The position numbers and the translations under genes were made by a program. The notes beneath the pieces were generated by a model. It had not been told where the DNA came from and did not search any database. It saw nothing but the letters and a program-made list of their open reading frames with translations. A stretch of DNA of 64,000 nucleotides from Bacteroidota bacterium (GTDB lineage Bacteria > Bacteroidota > Rhodothermia > Rhodothermales > Bin80): the NCBI GenBank assembly GCA_026709065.1, contig JAPOTS010000136.1, positions 1 through 64,000 of the forward strand, given 5' to 3'. Of this stretch, positions 16,441 through 25,323 are shown in pieces. Each line of letters opens with the position of its first letter. Within the stretch, counting starts at the first letter, position 1.

Positions 16441-16818
16441 GTAGTAGAAATATATTACAGATAATGGAAATACGTTCTACTGATTTAAGTTTTAAATGTG
16501 CGTTTAATCATGAAAGAACTATGCGCATTTCAAAACAATCAAATAAGTGGATTGGAATCTTCAATTGATCATGACAGTCATGGTATTTTCAAAACTTATC
16601 AGCGTAGATATTATTCCCAGATAAATATTAGGTTAATTTCACAATAGGGACGATATTTATGCTGAGTATCAACTTCATAAATGTGACATGATAAAAATAT
16701 ACGGGATTGATTGGATCATAATCAATCTCTAATCATGATGATTCGGAAACCTTTTTACCGAAGAATGTCTGGCGAATTTTGGCCAGTTCACACATCCGTT
16801 ACTAGAAATGCAGAAAGA
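16441..16818. other. Intergenic, about 380 bp; nothing recognised
   Basis: AT-rich stretch between pgsA and the end of the extended HNH reading frame. No credible open frame or RNA motif is seen. It should carry the promoter of pgsA-ftsY at its left end, but no consensus is clear. Confidence 0.5.
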
Positions 16819-18750
16819 TTAAGGAGTATTAACTGTAGTGGTACAATTTTCGAGTAGAACCTTTACCGCTTGTTGCTCAGCATAGTCCATCGTTAATCTC
16901 CATTTATTTTTCAGCTCAACCCATCGGCCTGTATATTGGCAGTGATAATCTGAATTAGGGGGGAGCCAGTGAGCGGGATCTCAACTTCCTTTTGATAGAT
17001 TTACACTGGCATAAACAGGAATTAAGACTCCATTTTCACTCAGATCATTTCCAAAAGAATAGCGTGTACTATCATTCCATTTTGCCCCACCACTGCGATG
17101 CGCCTCGGCAAGAGGAATGAAATGATCAATATTTATGTTTGATGGATCTGTAATGAGAGTGTCCAGATATGGATCATACCATTGACCTCCAATAACAAAG
17201 CAACCGCTTTCATCAAGACTTGCATCAACGAGGCTCCGAGCGACTAAAACTTCATGGCGGGTGTTTTGGCAATCGTTATCAAAATCCAACCAGCCTCCAT
17301 ATAGGCTTCGTTGGTAGGGGAGGGCGGAGATATGAACCTTCGATGTGTCAGGGGGAATGAATAAAGGATCTTCGGAATGGGTAGATTTGGTGTTGGTTTC
17401 TGCACAAAATCCAGATTGTTGAAGATCACTTAGCATTGTATCATTGATTCCATACACATCCAAAAGTGCTTCCATAGAGGAGAATGGTCCAAAATGATCA
17501 CGATGGTCAATGATAGATTGAGCACTGGCTGGGTCAATGCCATCTACAAGTTGAAGAGTAGTTGAATTAGAAGAATTGATATTTTCACAAGGGGTAACAG
17601 ATCTACTATAATCAGTTAACGCCCCGTATGTCTGACGGTCAGGATCATCCCTTTCGTGATTAGATGCTCGGACACAAAAGTTAGCGCTGCGAAAATTCTC
17701 CAAGGTTGATTCTCCGATTCCGTTAACACGAATCAATTCATCAAGAGACTGAAATGGGCCATTTCTGTCACGATATTCAATAATGGTATGGGCTTTTGCT
17801 GCGCCTATTCCACGGACGCGTTGTAATGCAGAAGCAATGGTAGTATTGATGTCATCGCAATTGTTATCCATGGTGGACGAAGAGTGATTTGTTGTTTCAC
17901 TACTGGATTCGGAGTGTCCATTGGTGTTGATTTGATTTAGAACACAAAAACCTGCCTTGCGAAATTTCTCAAGTTTCGCAAAACCAATGCCTTTGACATT
18001 GGTCAGTTCATTGAGAGATTTGTAGGGGCCATTTTCATTGCGGTAATTAATGACTGCCTGAGCTTTGACAGCACCGATTGTTTTGACCCTCTGCAGATCA
18101 TTAACATTGGCCGTATTCATATCTATGCAATCTTCAACGGAATCACTAGGATCGTCACTATATGGGGGTGTCTGAGGTTGATTCTCACCGTCATCCTTTC
18201 GCACACAAAAGTCAGCGATGCGAAAAATTTCAACTGTTGCTGCCCCGATCCCTTTCACGTTAGCTAATTCGTCGAGTGATTGAAATGGTCCATTTTGGTC
18301 ACGGTAGGCAATGATTCTTAATGCTTTCGCACGACCGATTCCTCTGACTCTCATTATCACCGAAGCACTGGCGATGTTAATGTCCTTACAGTCAAACTCG
18401 GCCCGATAGATGGACGGTATCTCAAACTGAGATATCGATACATGTCCGTCCACGGATGCTTTGATAATCCAAGTGTGGTTTGATTGAAGTGCGATAAGCA
18501 GATCAGATCGGGAGATGTCACAACGCTTAAATTGGGCGGCATCCATGGGCATATGCCAATCAATACAGAGTGATTTAGACTTCTCTACATGGGAAACATC
18601 ATGGATCCAATTATTCCTTAATCCAAGAAGTGTTGAAGTCTCAAGTAGGGAGTTAGCAGTGGTCTGCAGTGTAAAGGATGCCCATGAAATTATCAGTAAG
18701 ATTAAGGACTTCATCAAATATCCTAATGTTCTAATCGTTGATTTATTCAT
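16819..18750 (-). pseudogene. Secreted protein with four HhH (ComEA-like) repeats and HNH nuclease domain, interrupted by in-frame TGA
   Basis: The frame starts at 18750 with a signal peptide (MKSLILLIISWASFTLQTTANS, about residues 13-34). Four helix-hairpin-helix modules follow at about 121-182, 208-269, 298-359 and 388-449, with core motifs such as RVRGIGAAKAHTII and NVKGIGFAKLEKF. An HNH domain of the DUF1524/GmrSD-C kind begins near 478 (SLYGGWLDFDNDCQ, NIDHFIPLAEAHRSGG). A TGA at 16981-16983 ends the open frame at 589 aa. The same frame then continues 53 codons with exactly the rest of the domain (DPAHWLPPNSDYHCQYTGRW ... VKVLLENC) to a TAA at 16819. The TGA sits where family members have a basic or polar residue between KG[SD] and DP, so it is most simply a CGA to TGA change. 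Possible role: extracellular DNA processing or uptake. Strong as a homology call, uncertain as to whether it is still functional. Confidence 0.8.
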
Positions 18751-20083
18751 ATAATACTCAGCGAATCATTTGTTGATTGTTGTACCATCTGTGAATTGAT
18801 TTCTGGTTATTGATAATTGGTGCAATGGCTGTATCCATAGCAATTTAATGATTTGATCTGTTAAGTTAGTTCTCATTGGATTTTCTTGATATAGATAATT
18901 AGAACAGTAACAACTCATATTGCAAGAGCATATGATCGTGTTTCAAAATACGATCCGATGTAATGAGGGGAATAGTTATATGAGTATGATACCCAAAATT
19001 CAGCTTCGTGACGTTGAATCACTTGTGATATGGAAGAACTATTCTGGCGTAGAATGGACTGTTCCATTTCGGGATAGGGGCTTGTATCAATGTTGTTGAA
19101 ACATCTTAGAGTCAGGGAGCACACATCGTATCGTGCGTACATACAGTTATATCCTGAGATACATCATCGCTTCTCCTGTGGAATTTCGAATTATTTCTGG
19201 AATCATTACTAATTACGGCCCCACCACCGTCAACCTCTCTATAGGTGCCCTCTTGTGGCGGATCAAAATGGTTCTGAGGACTTATCTCACAAAGCTGATC
19301 CTTAACTCTGAAATGCGACTTTCTAATGATATTCGAGGTTTAGTGAACGGGTCGCACATTTTGAGGGACTGCCCTTAGAATCAATAAGAGGTCGGGAGAC
19401 GACTGAGGTGCCTGCGGGGCGGCATCCCCAGCCTGAGTGTGGCCAACCTAGCACAATTGAGACATGCAGAAGATGCTTGTCATGCCTCATAGATTGCAGA
19501 GCAGCAAGACAATTAGGGGGCTTCAGTTTTTGAGTGGGTGAAGCATAAAAAATGACCGTAAAGAATAAGAATAATGACAAGATTGGGAAGTGATTTCAGA
19601 GAATTTAATGATGTCTTTGATTCACCAATATAGCCCGATAAATGCAAATATGTCAGGTGTTGACCGACAAAATTCGTGCTGGAATTCTGAACTCAATTAT
19701 CGTTTTAATACCATTTAATTCTATTTTTTAGAAGTATGGACTTATATTTTAAGAATCTTCAAAAACAGTCTAACCATACTAATAATGGAAGAAGCTAAAT
19801 TGTATTCGCAGAGTCATAGATAGGTAATCTTATGCATTGACATACGAAGAATACTTGAACAATAAGGCGAATTTTGTGGAGCTATATCTCAAACTGTAAC
19901 TCACAAGAATCTCCTGATCTTATGCCTATTATTTTGATGCAAATACTCTAATTTGAGCTATATTCTCACACAAATCGTATTATTGATCTTAATTTAAACT
20001 CAATACAGTTTGGTCTATAATTCCTATATTATTACTGGGTTCGCGACAATTGTCGTGGAGCACTTGAGTCGCAATGAATTGCT
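18751..20083. other. Gene-poor stretch of 1.3 kb with a Cys-rich open fragment
   Basis: No intact gene is supported. The segment at about 19337-19531 is locally GC-rich and one plus frame reads RFSERVAHFEGLPLES... then PECGQPSTIETCRRCLSC and IDCRAARQLGG, with no start codon and stops on both sides. This looks like a remnant of a Cys-rich coding region that I cannot assign. The rest is AT-rich with only short chance frames. Confidence 0.4.
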
Positions 20084-20558
20084 ATGAATGAAGAGTTATT
20101 GAAGATTGAGAATTATCTCGAATTTCTACGTGCACGCCGAAAACTTTTGGCAGATGTAGCCAATAAGTTTTTGAATCAGCTTAATCCAGATCACCCCAGA
20201 GTACTTGAGAAGATACCCTCCAAATCAGATGAATCAAGTTGGTCCGATAAAGTTCTTACTTCAGTGAACCGTTGGATGAAGAGAGTCAATTACAGGAAGT
20301 TCAGGAATGGACCAAATCACAGCAACCTCCTCCGAGCAAATTTGGCTTTGATCTTGCACTCTCCTCTGATGATAGGGTAACGATTATTGACTTAGCATGG
20401 GGCCGAATGGAATACGAATTAGACTTGATCGTCCAGTCGCTTTACTGCTCAACGAATGGGCTGAAACCTATCTAACCGTAACCCAAGCAGGCTATAAGTG
20501 TTTAATTGATGTTGACACCCTAAAAAAATACTACAAACTAAAATCACAGAGGGACTAG
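20084..20558 (+). pseudogene. Unidentified gene broken by two frameshifts
   Basis: Three successive plus frames join into one plausible protein of about 155 aa. Frame one runs from ATG 20084 (MNEELLKIENYLEFLRARRK ... SWSDKVLTSVNRW) to about 20275. Frame two continues LDEESQLQEVQEWTKSQQPP and KFGFDLALSSDDRVTIIDLAW to about 20400. Frame three continues PNGIRIRLDRPVALLLNEWA and VTQAGYKCLIDVDTLKKYY to a TAG at 20556-20558. The protein-like composition is maintained in the chosen frame on each side of each junction, which argues for recent frameshifts or assembly indels rather than chance. I do not recognise the family. It lies 245 bp before the SNF2 helicase gene in the same direction. Confidence 0.55.
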
Positions 20559-20802
20559 TATTGATTATTTTGCATGTCACAGTTGTACTAAAGGTTATAG
20601 ATCAACGTAGTCACTCTCCGCTCGTTAAAATGATTAGTCAAATGTTAATTGGTCAGGAGTATTCCTTGAGGGTTGTACCAGTTTCCAAGTGTTCTGGGAG
20701 TCAACCACCAAAGTATGATTTCTTGAATGAGATGCAAGTTTTAAGACACAAGAAATGTACATCACAACCAATGGGTCAATATAGTATCGTTAATTCATAA
20801 AA

Positions 20803-23800
20803 ATGGTCATTCTTCATTTAGGTGTTTGGGAAGATCGGTTCTTGCTGTGGGGCGAAGTACCAAAGGAAAAAATAGGCAAATCTAAAAAAATTCTACCCTA
20901 TGCCGCTCCTCCTAAACAGCTGATAAGTATAGCTGCTGACATAGGTCTTCGGCTCCAAGCGACTAGATCAGTGCGTCAGCATTTATGGCTTCCAACACAG
21001 GGGGATATTCCATTGCCATCAAGTCCAATGATCGCAGATGTCCCGCCAGACGATTCAAAACCCATTCTGACACCATGGCCTATCCCTACACTTCCCCTTT
21101 CCGCTGAAAATACGATTGATTTACTTGGATCCTGCTATGGACGAAAAATACTTGCTCCCGGCATTCTTATTGGTTCTGATCTACACTTCTTGACCAATGT
21201 ATTGCGATTTGCAGGAGCATTGACTGCTCGACAACAGTTTTTGCCAAATTTGTATGAGGGAGCGGGCAAGTTTCTAGCCGTCTGGGAACCCGTTATCTTA
21301 GGGAAGGACACACAAGTCATTTCGATCCTATCCAATGCTATGCCCCATGCATGCAGAGCATTCACAAAAGACGATAAAGCTGCCCCAGATAAGGATCCAA
21401 ACTTAGTTATCTATAGACTTTTGAAGGTTTTTGTAGACTATTTAGTCAGGCTATCTTGGACGGAAAAACAACTCTCCAAAGCATCCAAGACACCTAAGAA
21501 ATCGTTTGATAGCCTTCACGATCAGTGGACTCATGCATTATGCAGTTGGAATTCCACCATGTCGGGTGATCCAGATGAGTTGGCGTATCTAGCTCAGCAA
21601 ATCAAATCGTGGCAACGGCCGCTGTCGGTAACAGCCAAAACACCATTTCGGTTGTGCTTTCGCCTTGAAGAACCAGAGGAGGATTCCAATGAACAATGGT
21701 TTGTCCGTTATCTCCTGAATCCAACAGATGATCCAAGTCTGTACATTGAAGTGGCGGATGCATGGGTTCCAGAGCAGCAGACAAAATCCATTTTTTCAAA
21801 ATATCAGACCAATATTCAGGAATACCTCCTCTTATCATTGGGACATGTTTCTACGGTTCATCCTATTTTCGCTGAAAGCCTGAAGACCAATTGCCCGGGT
21901 GGAGCTGATTTAGACACCGAAGGAGCCTATACGTTCTTAAATGAAACAGCATGGCTCTTGCAACAGGCTGGGTATCATGTTCAACTTCCATCATGGTGGA
22001 CGGCAAGCGGTGCAAGAAGACAACTTTCGGTGAAGGCCTCGGTATCCTCCCCTAAAATGCAGAGTCAGAGTGGCATCTCGTTGGATACGATTGTAGACTT
22101 TGACTGGCAACTATCTATCGGAGATGAGCAGATCTCTATGGAAGAGATTGAAGCACTCACTCAGCTCAAGATCCCACTTGTACAAATTCGCGGTCAATGG
22201 ATGCAGTTTGATGCTGATGCCATTCAGGAAGCCATTCGGTTTTGGAAGAAAATGCAAGGCCAAGACATGACCGCAAGAGATGCTGTGCAGATGGCCATTG
22301 GTTCAGCCAAAACGCCCGACCAGCTTCCATTGGATGGGATTGAGGCTTCGGGGTGGGTTGGAGATCTTCTCTACTCCTTAGAAAACAATTCAGAAATTGA
22401 AGAAATTCCCATTTCTGATCTATTTAATGGAACGCTGCGCCCCTATCAATCTCGCGGTTACTCATGGTTAGCCTTTATGCAGCAATGGGGGTTTGGTGTC
22501 TGTCTTGCAGATGATATGGGATTGGGGAAAACTCCGCAGACGCTTGCGATGATTCAACGCACCAAAGAGTCCAATCCAAAGCAACCAATCTTGGTCGTAA
22601 GTCCTACATCTGTGATTGGTAACTGGCAAAATGAATCTGCACATTTCACACCCAGTTTATCCGTTCTTGTACATCATGGAATGCGCCGAATAAAGGATCC
22701 AGAAGTCTTCAAAGAAGAAGCTAAAAAGACAGATGTGGTTTTGACTGGCTTCCCGCTCCTACATCGGGATTTTGAGGTCTTGAATCAGATCAAATGGAGT
22801 GCGATCGTTTTGGATGAAGCTCAAAATATCAAGAACCCTGGAACAAAGCAGGCCAAGGCAGCTCGGGCACTTGAAGCCAATTATCGAATTGCCCTTACAG
22901 GAACTCCTGTAGAAAATAATGTAGGAGAGCTATGGTCCATCATGGAATTTCTCAATCCAGGGATGCTTGATTCGCAGGCCGAGTTCAAACGTCAGTTTTT
23001 TGTTCCCATCCAGGTTGATCGTGATCAACGAACAACGCAGCTGCTGAAACAGATTACAGGACCGTTCATCCTTCGTAGACTCAAAACCGACAAAAACATC
23101 ATTGATGATCTACCTGAAAAACAAGAGACAAATGTCTTTACAAAGCTGACGAAAGAACAGGGATCTCTGTATCGCGCCGTTGTCAAAGAAATCTCGGAAG
23201 GACTTAAAGATGCTGAGAATATTCAGCGCAAAGGGTTGATCCTTGCCACACTTATGAAACTCAAACAGATCTGTAATCACCCAGCTCAGTTTCTCCATGA
23301 TGCCTCAGAAATTGCTGGTCGATCGGGTAAGTTAACCCGCCTCCTTGAAATGCTTGAAGAGGTGTACGAGATTGGCGATCGTGCACTCATTTTTACTCAA
23401 TTTACAGAAATGGGTGAGATGCTTCGCAAACACCTTCAGGAAACCTTCGGACGAGAAGTTCTCTTTCTACATGGTGGAGTTCCCAAGAAAAAACGTGATC
23501 AAATGATTGAACGTTTTCAGCATGAGGACATGGGTCCGCAAATTTTTCTATTATCTTTAAAGGCAGCAGGTACTGGGTTAAACCTCACCCGTGCTAATCA
23601 TGTTTTTCATTATGATCGTTGGTGGAATCCTGCCGTTGAGAATCAGGCTACAGATCGTGCTTTTCGAATTGGACAAACAAAGCATGTACAGGTGTACAAG
23701 TTCGTTTGTAGTGGAACAATTGAAGAACACATCCACCAAATGATTGAGAAAAAACGAGAAGTTGCTGACAGTGTCGTATCAGCTGGAGAACAGTGGATTA

Positions 23801-23862
23801 CGGAACTATCTACGCGTGATCTTAAAAATGCTCTTCGCCTGCAAAGGGAAGCTGTTGAATAA
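20803..23862 (+). CDS. SNF2-family DEAD/DEAH-box helicase
   Basis: Large ATP-dependent DNA translocase of 1019 aa. The first 500 residues are the N-terminal region of the bacterial SNF2 helicase-associated kind. The motor starts near residue 546 (LRPYQSRGYSWLAFM), with motif I DDMGLGKTPQTLA at about 570, motif II LDEAQ (DEAQ box) with NIKNP after it, motif III ALTGTPVENN, and the second RecA fold carrying HGGVPKKKRDQMIERFQ and AAGTGLNL ... RWWNPAVENQATDRAFRIGQ. All motor motifs look intact. It is followed after 26 bp by a SWIM zinc-finger gene, a pairing widespread in bacteria whose role is poorly known (chromatin-like remodelling, repair or defence have been proposed). A broken gene precedes it. 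Confidence 0.92.
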   Translation: MVILHLGVWEDRFLLWGEVPKEKIGKSKKILPYAAPPKQLISIAADIGLRLQATRSVRQHLWLPTQGDIPLPSSPMIADVPPDDSKPILTPWPIPTLPLSAENTIDLLGSCYGRKILAPGILIGSDLHFLTNVLRFAGALTARQQFLPNLYEGAGKFLAVWEPVILGKDTQVISILSNAMPHACRAFTKDDKAAPDKDPNLVIYRLLKVFVDYLVRLSWTEKQLSKASKTPKKSFDSLHDQWTHALCSWNSTMSGDPDELAYLAQQIKSWQRPLSVTAKTPFRLCFRLEEPEEDSNEQWFVRYLLNPTDDPSLYIEVADAWVPEQQTKSIFSKYQTNIQEYLLLSLGHVSTVHPIFAESLKTNCPGGADLDTEGAYTFLNETAWLLQQAGYHVQLPSWWTASGARRQLSVKASVSSPKMQSQSGISLDTIVDFDWQLSIGDEQISMEEIEALTQLKIPLVQIRGQWMQFDADAIQEAIRFWKKMQGQDMTARDAVQMAIGSAKTPDQLPLDGIEASGWVGDLLYSLENNSEIEEIPISDLFNGTLRPYQSRGYSWLAFMQQWGFGVCLADDMGLGKTPQTLAMIQRTKESNPKQPILVVSPTSVIGNWQNESAHFTPSLSVLVHHGMRRIKDPEVFKEEAKKTDVVLTGFPLLHRDFEVLNQIKWSAIVLDEAQNIKNPGTKQAKAARALEANYRIALTGTPVENNVGELWSIMEFLNPGMLDSQAEFKRQFFVPIQVDRDQRTTQLLKQITGPFILRRLKTDKNIIDDLPEKQETNVFTKLTKEQGSLYRAVVKEISEGLKDAENIQRKGLILATLMKLKQICNHPAQFLHDASEIAGRSGKLTRLLEMLEEVYEIGDRALIFTQFTEMGEMLRKHLQETFGREVLFLHGGVPKKKRDQMIERFQHEDMGPQIFLLSLKAAGTGLNLTRANHVFHYDRWWNPAVENQATDRAFRIGQTKHVQVYKFVCSGTIEEHIHQMIEKKREVADSVVSAGEQWITELSTRDLKNALRLQREAVE

Positions 23863-23888
23863 TCTAAAATTTAAGAATCGCTTGGTTC

Positions 23889-24758
23889 ATGCCGAGATAC
23901 TACGACGACTATTACTACTTTCCTCCCGCTAGACCACGCACAGTAAAGGGAGGGATTAAACCCCAGTCTATGAGGGGGAGCTTTGGCAAGACTTGGTGGG
24001 GAATCAGATGGGTTGACACATTGGAGAGTTTCAGGATTGGGGCACGCCTTGGACGTGGCAAATCTTACGCACGTAGAGGTCAGGTGTTATCGATAGAAAT
24101 TAATAAAGGAAAGGTTAACTCCAAAGTTCAGGGATCAAGTGGTGCTCCCTACTCTGTGGAAATTGAAATGAAAACCTTCAAAGCATCAGTGTGGAAGAAA
24201 CTAGCACAATCATTGATGGAACAGCCTTACTATACAGCTCGGCTCATGGCAGGAGAGATCCCAGAGGATCTTGAGGATGTATTGAAGGAGGCTGGAACTC
24301 CGCTCTTTCCTGAACGACAGAATGACCTTAAGACGGGCTGCTCATGTCCAGATTGGTCTAACCCATGCAAACATATTGCAGCGGTCTACTACTTGTTGGC
24401 TGAAGAATTTGACCGAGATCCATTTCTGTTATTTGAGCTTCGTGGAATTACTCGTGAAGAACTTTTACATGCCATTACGGGTGAATCAGTTGAGAAGCAT
24501 GAAGACACAGATCATGAACCAGAGTTACAACATGCATCCATCCCTCTGCTCCCCGATGACCGTTATTGGAAGCAGGAGGAATTACCAGAAGATCTTATTG
24601 GAACGATTCATACGCCTCCGGTCCCCGCAGCACTTGTGAAGCGGCTAGGAAAGTTTCCCTTCTGGCGTGCTCATCATTCTCTGATCGGTACAATGGAACC
24701 TGTATATCAAAAGGCATCTCCCTGCGGGCTTGAGATTTATTATGGAGAAAAATCATGA
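23889..24758 (+). CDS. SWIM zinc-finger family protein
   Basis: Protein of 289 aa with a central SWIM motif (CxCx(n)CxH): CSCPDWSNPCKHIAAVYYLL near residues 150-169. The N-terminus is rich in Tyr and Arg (MPRYYDDYYYFPPARPR) followed by GKTWWGIRWVDTLE, a stretch common to this family. SWIM domains bind DNA or proteins. The gene follows the SNF2 helicase by 26 bp in the same direction and the two are a recurrent pair, so they probably act together. The C-terminal part after 200 is less conserved. Confidence 0.9.
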   Translation: MPRYYDDYYYFPPARPRTVKGGIKPQSMRGSFGKTWWGIRWVDTLESFRIGARLGRGKSYARRGQVLSIEINKGKVNSKVQGSSGAPYSVEIEMKTFKASVWKKLAQSLMEQPYYTARLMAGEIPEDLEDVLKEAGTPLFPERQNDLKTGCSCPDWSNPCKHIAAVYYLLAEEFDRDPFLLFELRGITREELLHAITGESVEKHEDTDHEPELQHASIPLLPDDRYWKQEELPEDLIGTIHTPPVPAALVKRLGKFPFWRAHHSLIGTMEPVYQKASPCGLEIYYGEKS

Positions 24759-25323
24759 GGTTTGTTCGGATTCAATCGCCATCAATATCAACAGAAGGGT
24801 AGGGAACAGGCGGCTCAGATCAAGAGAGATAGGATTGGATCCCCGCTCCTGCTACCCATGCATACGATACACTCTGCTACAAATTTAAAGTTTAACGTAT
24901 GAATGAATTCCGAATGAAAAGGGGTACGGATCGTAATCTATCTTTCTCATGTTTTATCTGGCCAAGAATCGCATTACACACAAACCTATATGATCCGCAT
25001 TACTAGATGGGAGAAGAGCTTTGTACAGTGTATCCGCAACAGACAGTATTCTATTCAACGATAGGAACAGTTTTGGTCAGTTTTATTAGAAGCCGTCAGA
25101 GCAGGCATTGGATCAAGGTTAAGTTGATGTGATTGTAGGCATTGGGTAGATTTGCAATTGATCCTAGTGAGAATGTAGAACTAACTGTTCATACAAGAAA
25201 TGTTTATCTTTTGAGTACTCCAGTATATATTTCCCAAATGTTACTTTAAAGTATATCTCTTCCTAACAACTTTATTCTAAAAGTTTTAAATACATAAATT
25301 CGGACTTACACTCATTATCATCA
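24759..25323. other. Intergenic, 565 bp, with a possible decayed coding fragment
   Basis: No intact gene. Near 25149-25248 one plus frame reads GRFAIDPSENVELTVHTRNV followed by a hydrophobic end and a TAA, which resembles the tail of a real protein without an upstream reading frame or start. This is weak evidence of decay. No RNA motif or riboswitch was recognised upstream of bioY. Confidence 0.3.

What the first reader, a model, noticed from the sequence alone, without database searches (positions are those of the whole stretch)
16981..18750. Four HhH modules each framed by a Cys pair 61 residues apart, fused to an HNH domain
Each of the four repeats starts with a Cys (121, 208, 298, 388; CKDIN, CIDMN, CDDIN, CENIN) and ends with a Cys (182, 269, 359, 449; FCV, FCV, FCV, FCA), with the same 61-residue spacing. 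This predicts one disulfide per module in an extracytoplasmic DNA-binding chain of ComEA-like units. The fourth repeat has lost the GIG hairpins (DGIDPAS, YGINDT). Multi-HhH plus HNH on a signal peptide is an uncommon layout that suggests a secreted DNA-binding nuclease, perhaps linked to DNA uptake or inter-cell killing.
Basis: partly seen in the sequence, partly recalled or inferred. Interest (0 to 1): 0.65.

Follow-up and report, generated by a model that had tools for sequence, protein, structure and literature searches.

The report
Exported HhH-array nuclease, interrupted copy
The gene encodes an exported DNA-cutting enzyme with a chain of four probably disulfide-framed DNA-gripping modules in front of the nuclease, a layout found in only one bacterial genus here, but in this genome a stop codon cuts the nuclease short.

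Summary
In detail: on the minus strand, 18750-16981, four ComEA-type HhH modules each run from Cys to Cys over 61 residues and precede an HNH domain. All eight cysteines are invariant in four orthologs from the same genus; ordinary ComEA-like HhH domains lack them. VKOR, an oxidative-folding enzyme, is in all 10 genomes of the genus, so one disulfide per module is well supported, though no structure showed it.

Past it, 53 more codons complete the domain; relatives have Arg at the stop. The annotated product lacks two core helices and a Cys pair.

Modules 1-3 keep the Lys/Arg positions that ComEA needs; module 4 is acidic and degenerate.

DNA uptake is unlikely: ComEC is absent from all 10 genomes, and no competence genes sit at three distinct ortholog sites. 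No toxin delivery part or immunity gene was recognised.

Best reading: an exported, probably non-specific His-Me finger DNase tethered to DNA by three HhH modules, intact in four relatives, probably a recent pseudogene (or assembly error) here. The full architecture occurs in 5 of 114 genomes of the order, all one genus.

The parts
16819..18750 (-). whole gene read through the TGA: signal peptide + 4 HhH modules + HNH (643 codons plus stop)
   Evidence: four uninterrupted orthologs of 587-619 aa
16981..18750 (-). ORF as annotated, ending at the in-frame TGA (589 aa)
18655..18750 (-). N-terminal signal peptide, residues 1-32; hydrophobic stretch and an invariant Ala at the likely cleavage site
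   Evidence: judged by eye and hydropathy only
18205..18390 (-). HhH module 1, Cys121-Cys182; GIG/GIG, K and R at the DNA-contact positions
17944..18129 (-). HhH module 2, Cys208-Cys269; TIG/GIG, K and R kept
17674..17859 (-). HhH module 3, Cys298-Cys359; GIG/GIG, K and R kept
17404..17589 (-). HhH module 4, Cys388-Cys449; degenerate (GID/GIN, S and Q at the contact positions, net charge -8)
16822..17316 (-). HNH (His-Me finger, GmrSD_C/DUF1524-like) domain, residues 479-643 with the stop read through
17122..17127 (-). Asp542-His543 of the HNH motif
   Evidence: invariant in A3 and A5
17047..17049 (-). Asn568, invariant Asn of the HNH domain
16999..17001 (-). Asn584, second invariant Asn (likely metal ligand); the next residue, Arg in nearly all relatives, is Leu here
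16981..16983 (-). in-frame TGA where the four orthologs have an Arg codon
16822..16980 (-). conserved HNH C-terminus beyond the stop (53 codons): two long helices and Cys604/Cys636
16441..25323 (.). 8.9 kb between pgsA and bioY that G003-G008 lack; holds this gene and an SNF2 helicase + SWIM pair

Best explanation
The gene family encodes an exported DNase. A Sec signal peptide takes it out of the cytoplasm; eight cysteines staple each of four ComEA-type HhH modules at its two ends, and four more stabilise the nuclease. Modules 1-3 grip double-stranded DNA without sequence preference through their hairpins and the conserved Lys/Arg, module 4 has lost these and acts as a spacer next to the nuclease, and the C-terminal His-Me finger (D542-H543, N568, N584, one divalent metal) cuts the held DNA. 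It most likely degrades DNA in the periplasm or at the cell surface, for scavenging or to clear or bar stray DNA. In this genome a nonsense codon just after the metal-binding helix removes the last two helices, so the copy here is probably a recent pseudogene, or the stop is an assembly error. Shown: architecture, Cys conservation, stop codon, intact orthologs, no ComEC, VKOR present. Inferred: disulfides, DNA binding, cleavage, location and role.
For: Four HHH_3 and one GmrSD_C domain in the window gene and in all four orthologs. Eight flanking Cys invariant and absent from ordinary ComEA-like HhH domains of the order and of viruses. VKOR in 10/10 genomes. Positions that match B. subtilis ComEA K164 and K199, whose Ala mutants lose over 100-fold transformation (PMC9747964), are K and R in modules 1-3 of every species and degenerate in module 4. 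HNH domain modelled at pLDDT 92 with the beta-beta-alpha core; best PDB fold neighbours are the periplasmic/extracellular nucleases Vvn/EndoI and Cas9 HNH, though weak (E 0.06, TM 0.41-0.46); D-H-N-N pattern as described for GmrD (PMC4619093). Exported stand-alone HNH relatives, median about 220 aa, are common in viral contigs. Purifying selection between G003 and G005: dN 0.018, dS 0.083; HNH 0.018 and 0.154. After the stop 0 of 20 positions invariant in the other four are changed.
Against: No biochemical data. Disulfides not seen in a model: the full-length prediction failed (pLDDT 33) and the tool returns no coordinates. The mature protein is acidic overall (net -24), so DNA affinity would rest on three modules. 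No second export signal (no Por_Secre_tail) was found, so 'extracellular' as opposed to periplasmic is unproven. The window copy itself lacks the end of the nuclease.
Confidence: 0.6

Rival explanations
1. DNA-uptake component: the HhH chain replaces ComEA as periplasmic DNA receptor and the nuclease trims incoming DNA.
For: HhH modules score over the ComEA family cut-off (TIGR01259); the genus has no stand-alone ComEA-type HhH protein.
Against: ComEC, required for transport in known transformation systems, is absent from all 10 genomes of the genus; half the genus lacks the gene altogether; no competence genes at three distinct ortholog sites.
Confidence: 0.05
2. Antibacterial toxin delivered to competitors.
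For: Nuclease domain at the C-terminus, patchy distribution (5 of 10 genomes), variable location.
Against: Ordinary N-terminal signal peptide, no known delivery domain, no small conserved gene next to it at the ortholog sites; four orderly HhH modules are not a known delivery part.
Confidence: 0.05
3. The stop is not real or not final: a base error in the draft assembly, or read-through of TGA, and the window copy is as functional as its relatives.
For: 0 of 20 invariant positions changed after the stop and 2 of 60 in the HNH domain before it; single-base difference from the nearest relative.
Against: TGA ends 11 of 32 long ORFs of the window, so no general recoding; Arg585, kept in over 90% of 50 relatives, is Leu here, which hints at relaxed selection.
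Confidence: 0.3
4. The truncated product is a selected form: an exported DNA-binding chain without nuclease activity.
For: All four HhH modules and the signal peptide remain open; the stop comes after the whole HhH array.
Against: The partial HNH domain would be left without two core helices; no other genome shows such a form.
Confidence: 0.07

Closest known systems
ComEA (competence DNA receptor; PDB 8dss, 8dfk)
   Same: same HhH domain type (E 5e-16 to the module profile), extracytoplasmic, Lys/Arg contact positions kept in modules 1-3
   Different: four copies, each framed by Cys, fused to a nuclease; genome lacks ComEC
GmrD/DUF1524 HNH domain (PF07510) and exported 'HNH endonuclease family proteins'
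   Same: C-terminal domain, D-H-N-N pattern, Cys positions, 34-48% identity to exported viral and plasmid members
   Different: those are stand-alone; none of 80 viral loci has HhH; no DUF262/GmrS part here
EEPD1 (PDB 9yi2), nuclease-fold protein with N-terminal ComEA-type HhH
   Same: tandem ComEA-type HhH in front of a nuclease-type domain; best PDB match to the modules
   Different: endonuclease/exonuclease/phosphatase fold instead of HNH, two modules, no Cys frame
Vvn / endonuclease I
   Same: exported His-Me finger DNase; nearest fold in the PDB
   Different: weak fold match, no Pfam hit, no HhH
SLH-metallo-beta-lactamase-HhH protein of Alkalihalophilus (L194)
   Same: surface protein joining a hydrolase fold to a ComEA-type HhH
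   Different: one HhH, other hydrolase, no Cys frame

Membership tests
ComEA | ComEA-type HhH domain | tested here: met
   HHH_3 x4, TIGR00426 and TIGR01259
ComEA | works with ComEC in transformation | tested here: not met
   no ComEC in 10 genomes of the genus
ComEA | small protein with one HhH domain | tested here: not met
   four modules plus HNH
GmrSD type IV restriction enzyme | GmrD (DUF1524) HNH domain | tested here: met
   PF07510 over cut-off
GmrSD type IV restriction enzyme | GmrS (DUF262) domain | tested here: not met
   no PF03235 match
GmrSD type IV restriction enzyme | cytoplasmic | tested here: not met
   signal peptide in all five, by sequence only
exported DUF1524-like HNH nucleases | signal peptide, invariant D-H, N, N and the C-terminal W/C/Y/C positions | tested here: met
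   in the window copy the last part lies beyond the stop
exported DUF1524-like HNH nucleases | DNase activity | not testable with these tools
   needs protein
Endonuclease I / Vvn | family sequence match and fold | tested here: inconclusive
   no Pfam match; weak fold match, E 0.06, TM 0.41-0.46
polymorphic toxin | delivery domain and immunity gene | tested here: not met
   none found in protein or neighbourhoods

The most novel reading that the evidence does not exclude
A genus-specific class of exported, disulfide-stapled HhH-array nucleases in which three modules hold DNA so that the nuclease cuts processively or at fixed spacing, with the acidic fourth module as a built-in spacer or gate.
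Probability: 0.25. Interest if true: 0.5.

Novelty: new variant of a known kind. Interest (0 to 1): 0.36.

Why it matters
Both halves are known, but the combination and the Cys frame were not found in the libraries and papers searched. It is a natural example of ComEA-type DNA binding being reused outside DNA uptake, and a ready set of disulfide-capped HhH modules for testing how multivalent DNA binding tunes an exported nuclease. For annotation it warns that 'ComEA' names on such genes are misleading.

Tried and rejected
Genome-wide TGA recoding: rejected, TGA ends 11 of 32 long ORFs. Full-length structure without alignment: failed, pLDDT 33. Plasmid search with the HhH part: ordinary ComEA, Tex and an SLH-lactamase-HhH protein. 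Rfam and tRNA scans near the gene: nothing. PADLOC: one chance-level match for the gene; the neighbour's hits are shared helicase parts. Literature: no paper found on HhH-HNH exported fusions or Cys-framed ComEA modules. Promoter and terminator scan: about as many sites as in shuffles.

Full report
WHAT IS THERE. The finding lies on the minus strand. The ORF 18750-16981 has 589 codons. It begins with a signal peptide (hydrophobic stretch from residue 12; Ala32 is invariant in all orthologs at the probable cleavage site), then four ComEA-type HhH modules (HHH_3 four times, total E 1e-68) and a GmrSD_C/DUF1524 HNH domain.

WHAT WAS MISSED. The ORF ends at a TGA inside the HNH domain. The same frame runs on for 53 codons...NLSKGS-stop-DPAHWLPPNSDYHCQYTGRWVELK..., which is the conserved end of the domain. 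All four orthologs have an Arg codon at the stop, the nearest one base away. In a confident model of the domain (pLDDT 92, 50 sequences) the stop falls just after the beta-beta-alpha core (strands at residues 539-543 and 576-580, helix 581-587) and removes two long, well-predicted helices (600-616 and 623-638) and the Cys604/Cys636 pair. The annotated product is therefore unlikely to be a working nuclease. Beyond the stop none of 20 positions invariant in the other species has changed, so the stop is recent, wrong, or read through. Leu for the nearly invariant Arg585 hints at relaxed selection. TGA is an ordinary stop in this genome. I put about 65% on a true recent nonsense mutation.

RELATIVES. 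Intact orthologs of 587-619 aa occur in G001, G002, G003 and G005 of the same genus. The full architecture is in 5 of 10 genomes of the genus, in no other of 114 genomes of the order, in no other of 245 of the class, and in no genome outside the genus among 395 sampled from the phylum. The E-value limits used would pass any comparable full-length match but not a very divergent one. In G001 and G002 the gene precedes accA; in G003 and G005 it follows an SLC13-type transporter gene (my reading of the sequence); in the window it sits in an 8.9 kb stretch between pgsA and bioY, which are neighbours in G003-G008. So the gene is patchy and its place varies. G003 and G005 show purifying selection.

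CYSTEINES. In 16 repeats from four species only eight columns are invariant, and the two Cys are among them. Ordinary ComEA-like HhH domains from the same order and from viruses, found with the same profile, have no Cys at either place. All ten genomes of the genus have VKOR, an oxidase for exported disulfides (family knowledge). In a two-HhH domain the first helix starts and the last helix ends on the same side (my reasoning from the known fold), so a Cys-Cys staple is plausible. It was not seen in a model: the full-length run failed.

MODULES DIFFER. B. subtilis ComEA K164 and K199 are each needed for transformation, over 100-fold loss (PMC9747964). I placed them by counting along the ComEA sequence aligned. 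The matching residues are K and R in modules 1-3 of all species; in module 4 they are S/Q, R/Q, L/L and K/L, its second hairpin is altered everywhere, and its net charge is -8 to -1. In the window its first hairpin is lost too. A division into three DNA-gripping modules and one spacer is therefore old in this family.

FUNCTION. The HNH domain belongs with exported stand-alone HNH proteins that are common on plasmids and in viral contigs. It has the D-H-N-N pattern described for GmrD and compared there with the periplasmic nuclease Vvn (PMC4619093); Vvn and its relatives are also the nearest, though weak, fold matches. Exported nucleases serve DNA scavenging, biofilm turnover or exclusion of foreign DNA (PMC6085458). 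Without a type IX tail the product would stay in the periplasm unless another route exists; a sister HNH protein in G006 does carry such a tail.

REJECTED ROLES. DNA uptake needs ComEC, which is absent from all 10 genomes while the same search rings in 10 of 14 controls. No delivery domain or immunity gene was recognised, so a toxin role has no support.

VERDICT. A real, conserved and unusual combination of known parts; the copy in the window is interrupted. New variant of a known kind; moderate interest.

Noticed in passing
window 19517-19562: A 46-base stretch (83% identical) is shared with the DNA about 620-660 bases upstream of the ortholog in G002 (L038:10-55), in the same orientation relative to the gene; it may be the end of a lost neighbouring gene.
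   Followed up: partly
window 18751-20802: About 2 kb of AT-rich DNA (38% GC) with no convincing gene, no tRNA and no Rfam match, between the nuclease gene and the SNF2 helicase; a 98-codon ORF at 20084-20380 has no Pfam match.
   Followed up: partly
window 20803-24758: SNF2 helicase (DUF3670) followed by a SWIM zinc-finger protein, in the same 8.9 kb insertion between pgsA and bioY.
   Followed up: partly
L003/L043 (G000:C6 from base 472): Another exported HNH protein of the same genome, 1429-codon frame, HNH followed by many Calx-beta-like repeats.
   Followed up: no
L020 (G006): An exported HNH protein with a type IX secretion sorting tail, suggesting that the genus sends some HNH nucleases to the outside.
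   Followed up: partly
window 18520-18567, minus strand (residues 62-77): An extra Cys pair in an N-terminal extension that the orthologs do not share.
   Followed up: no
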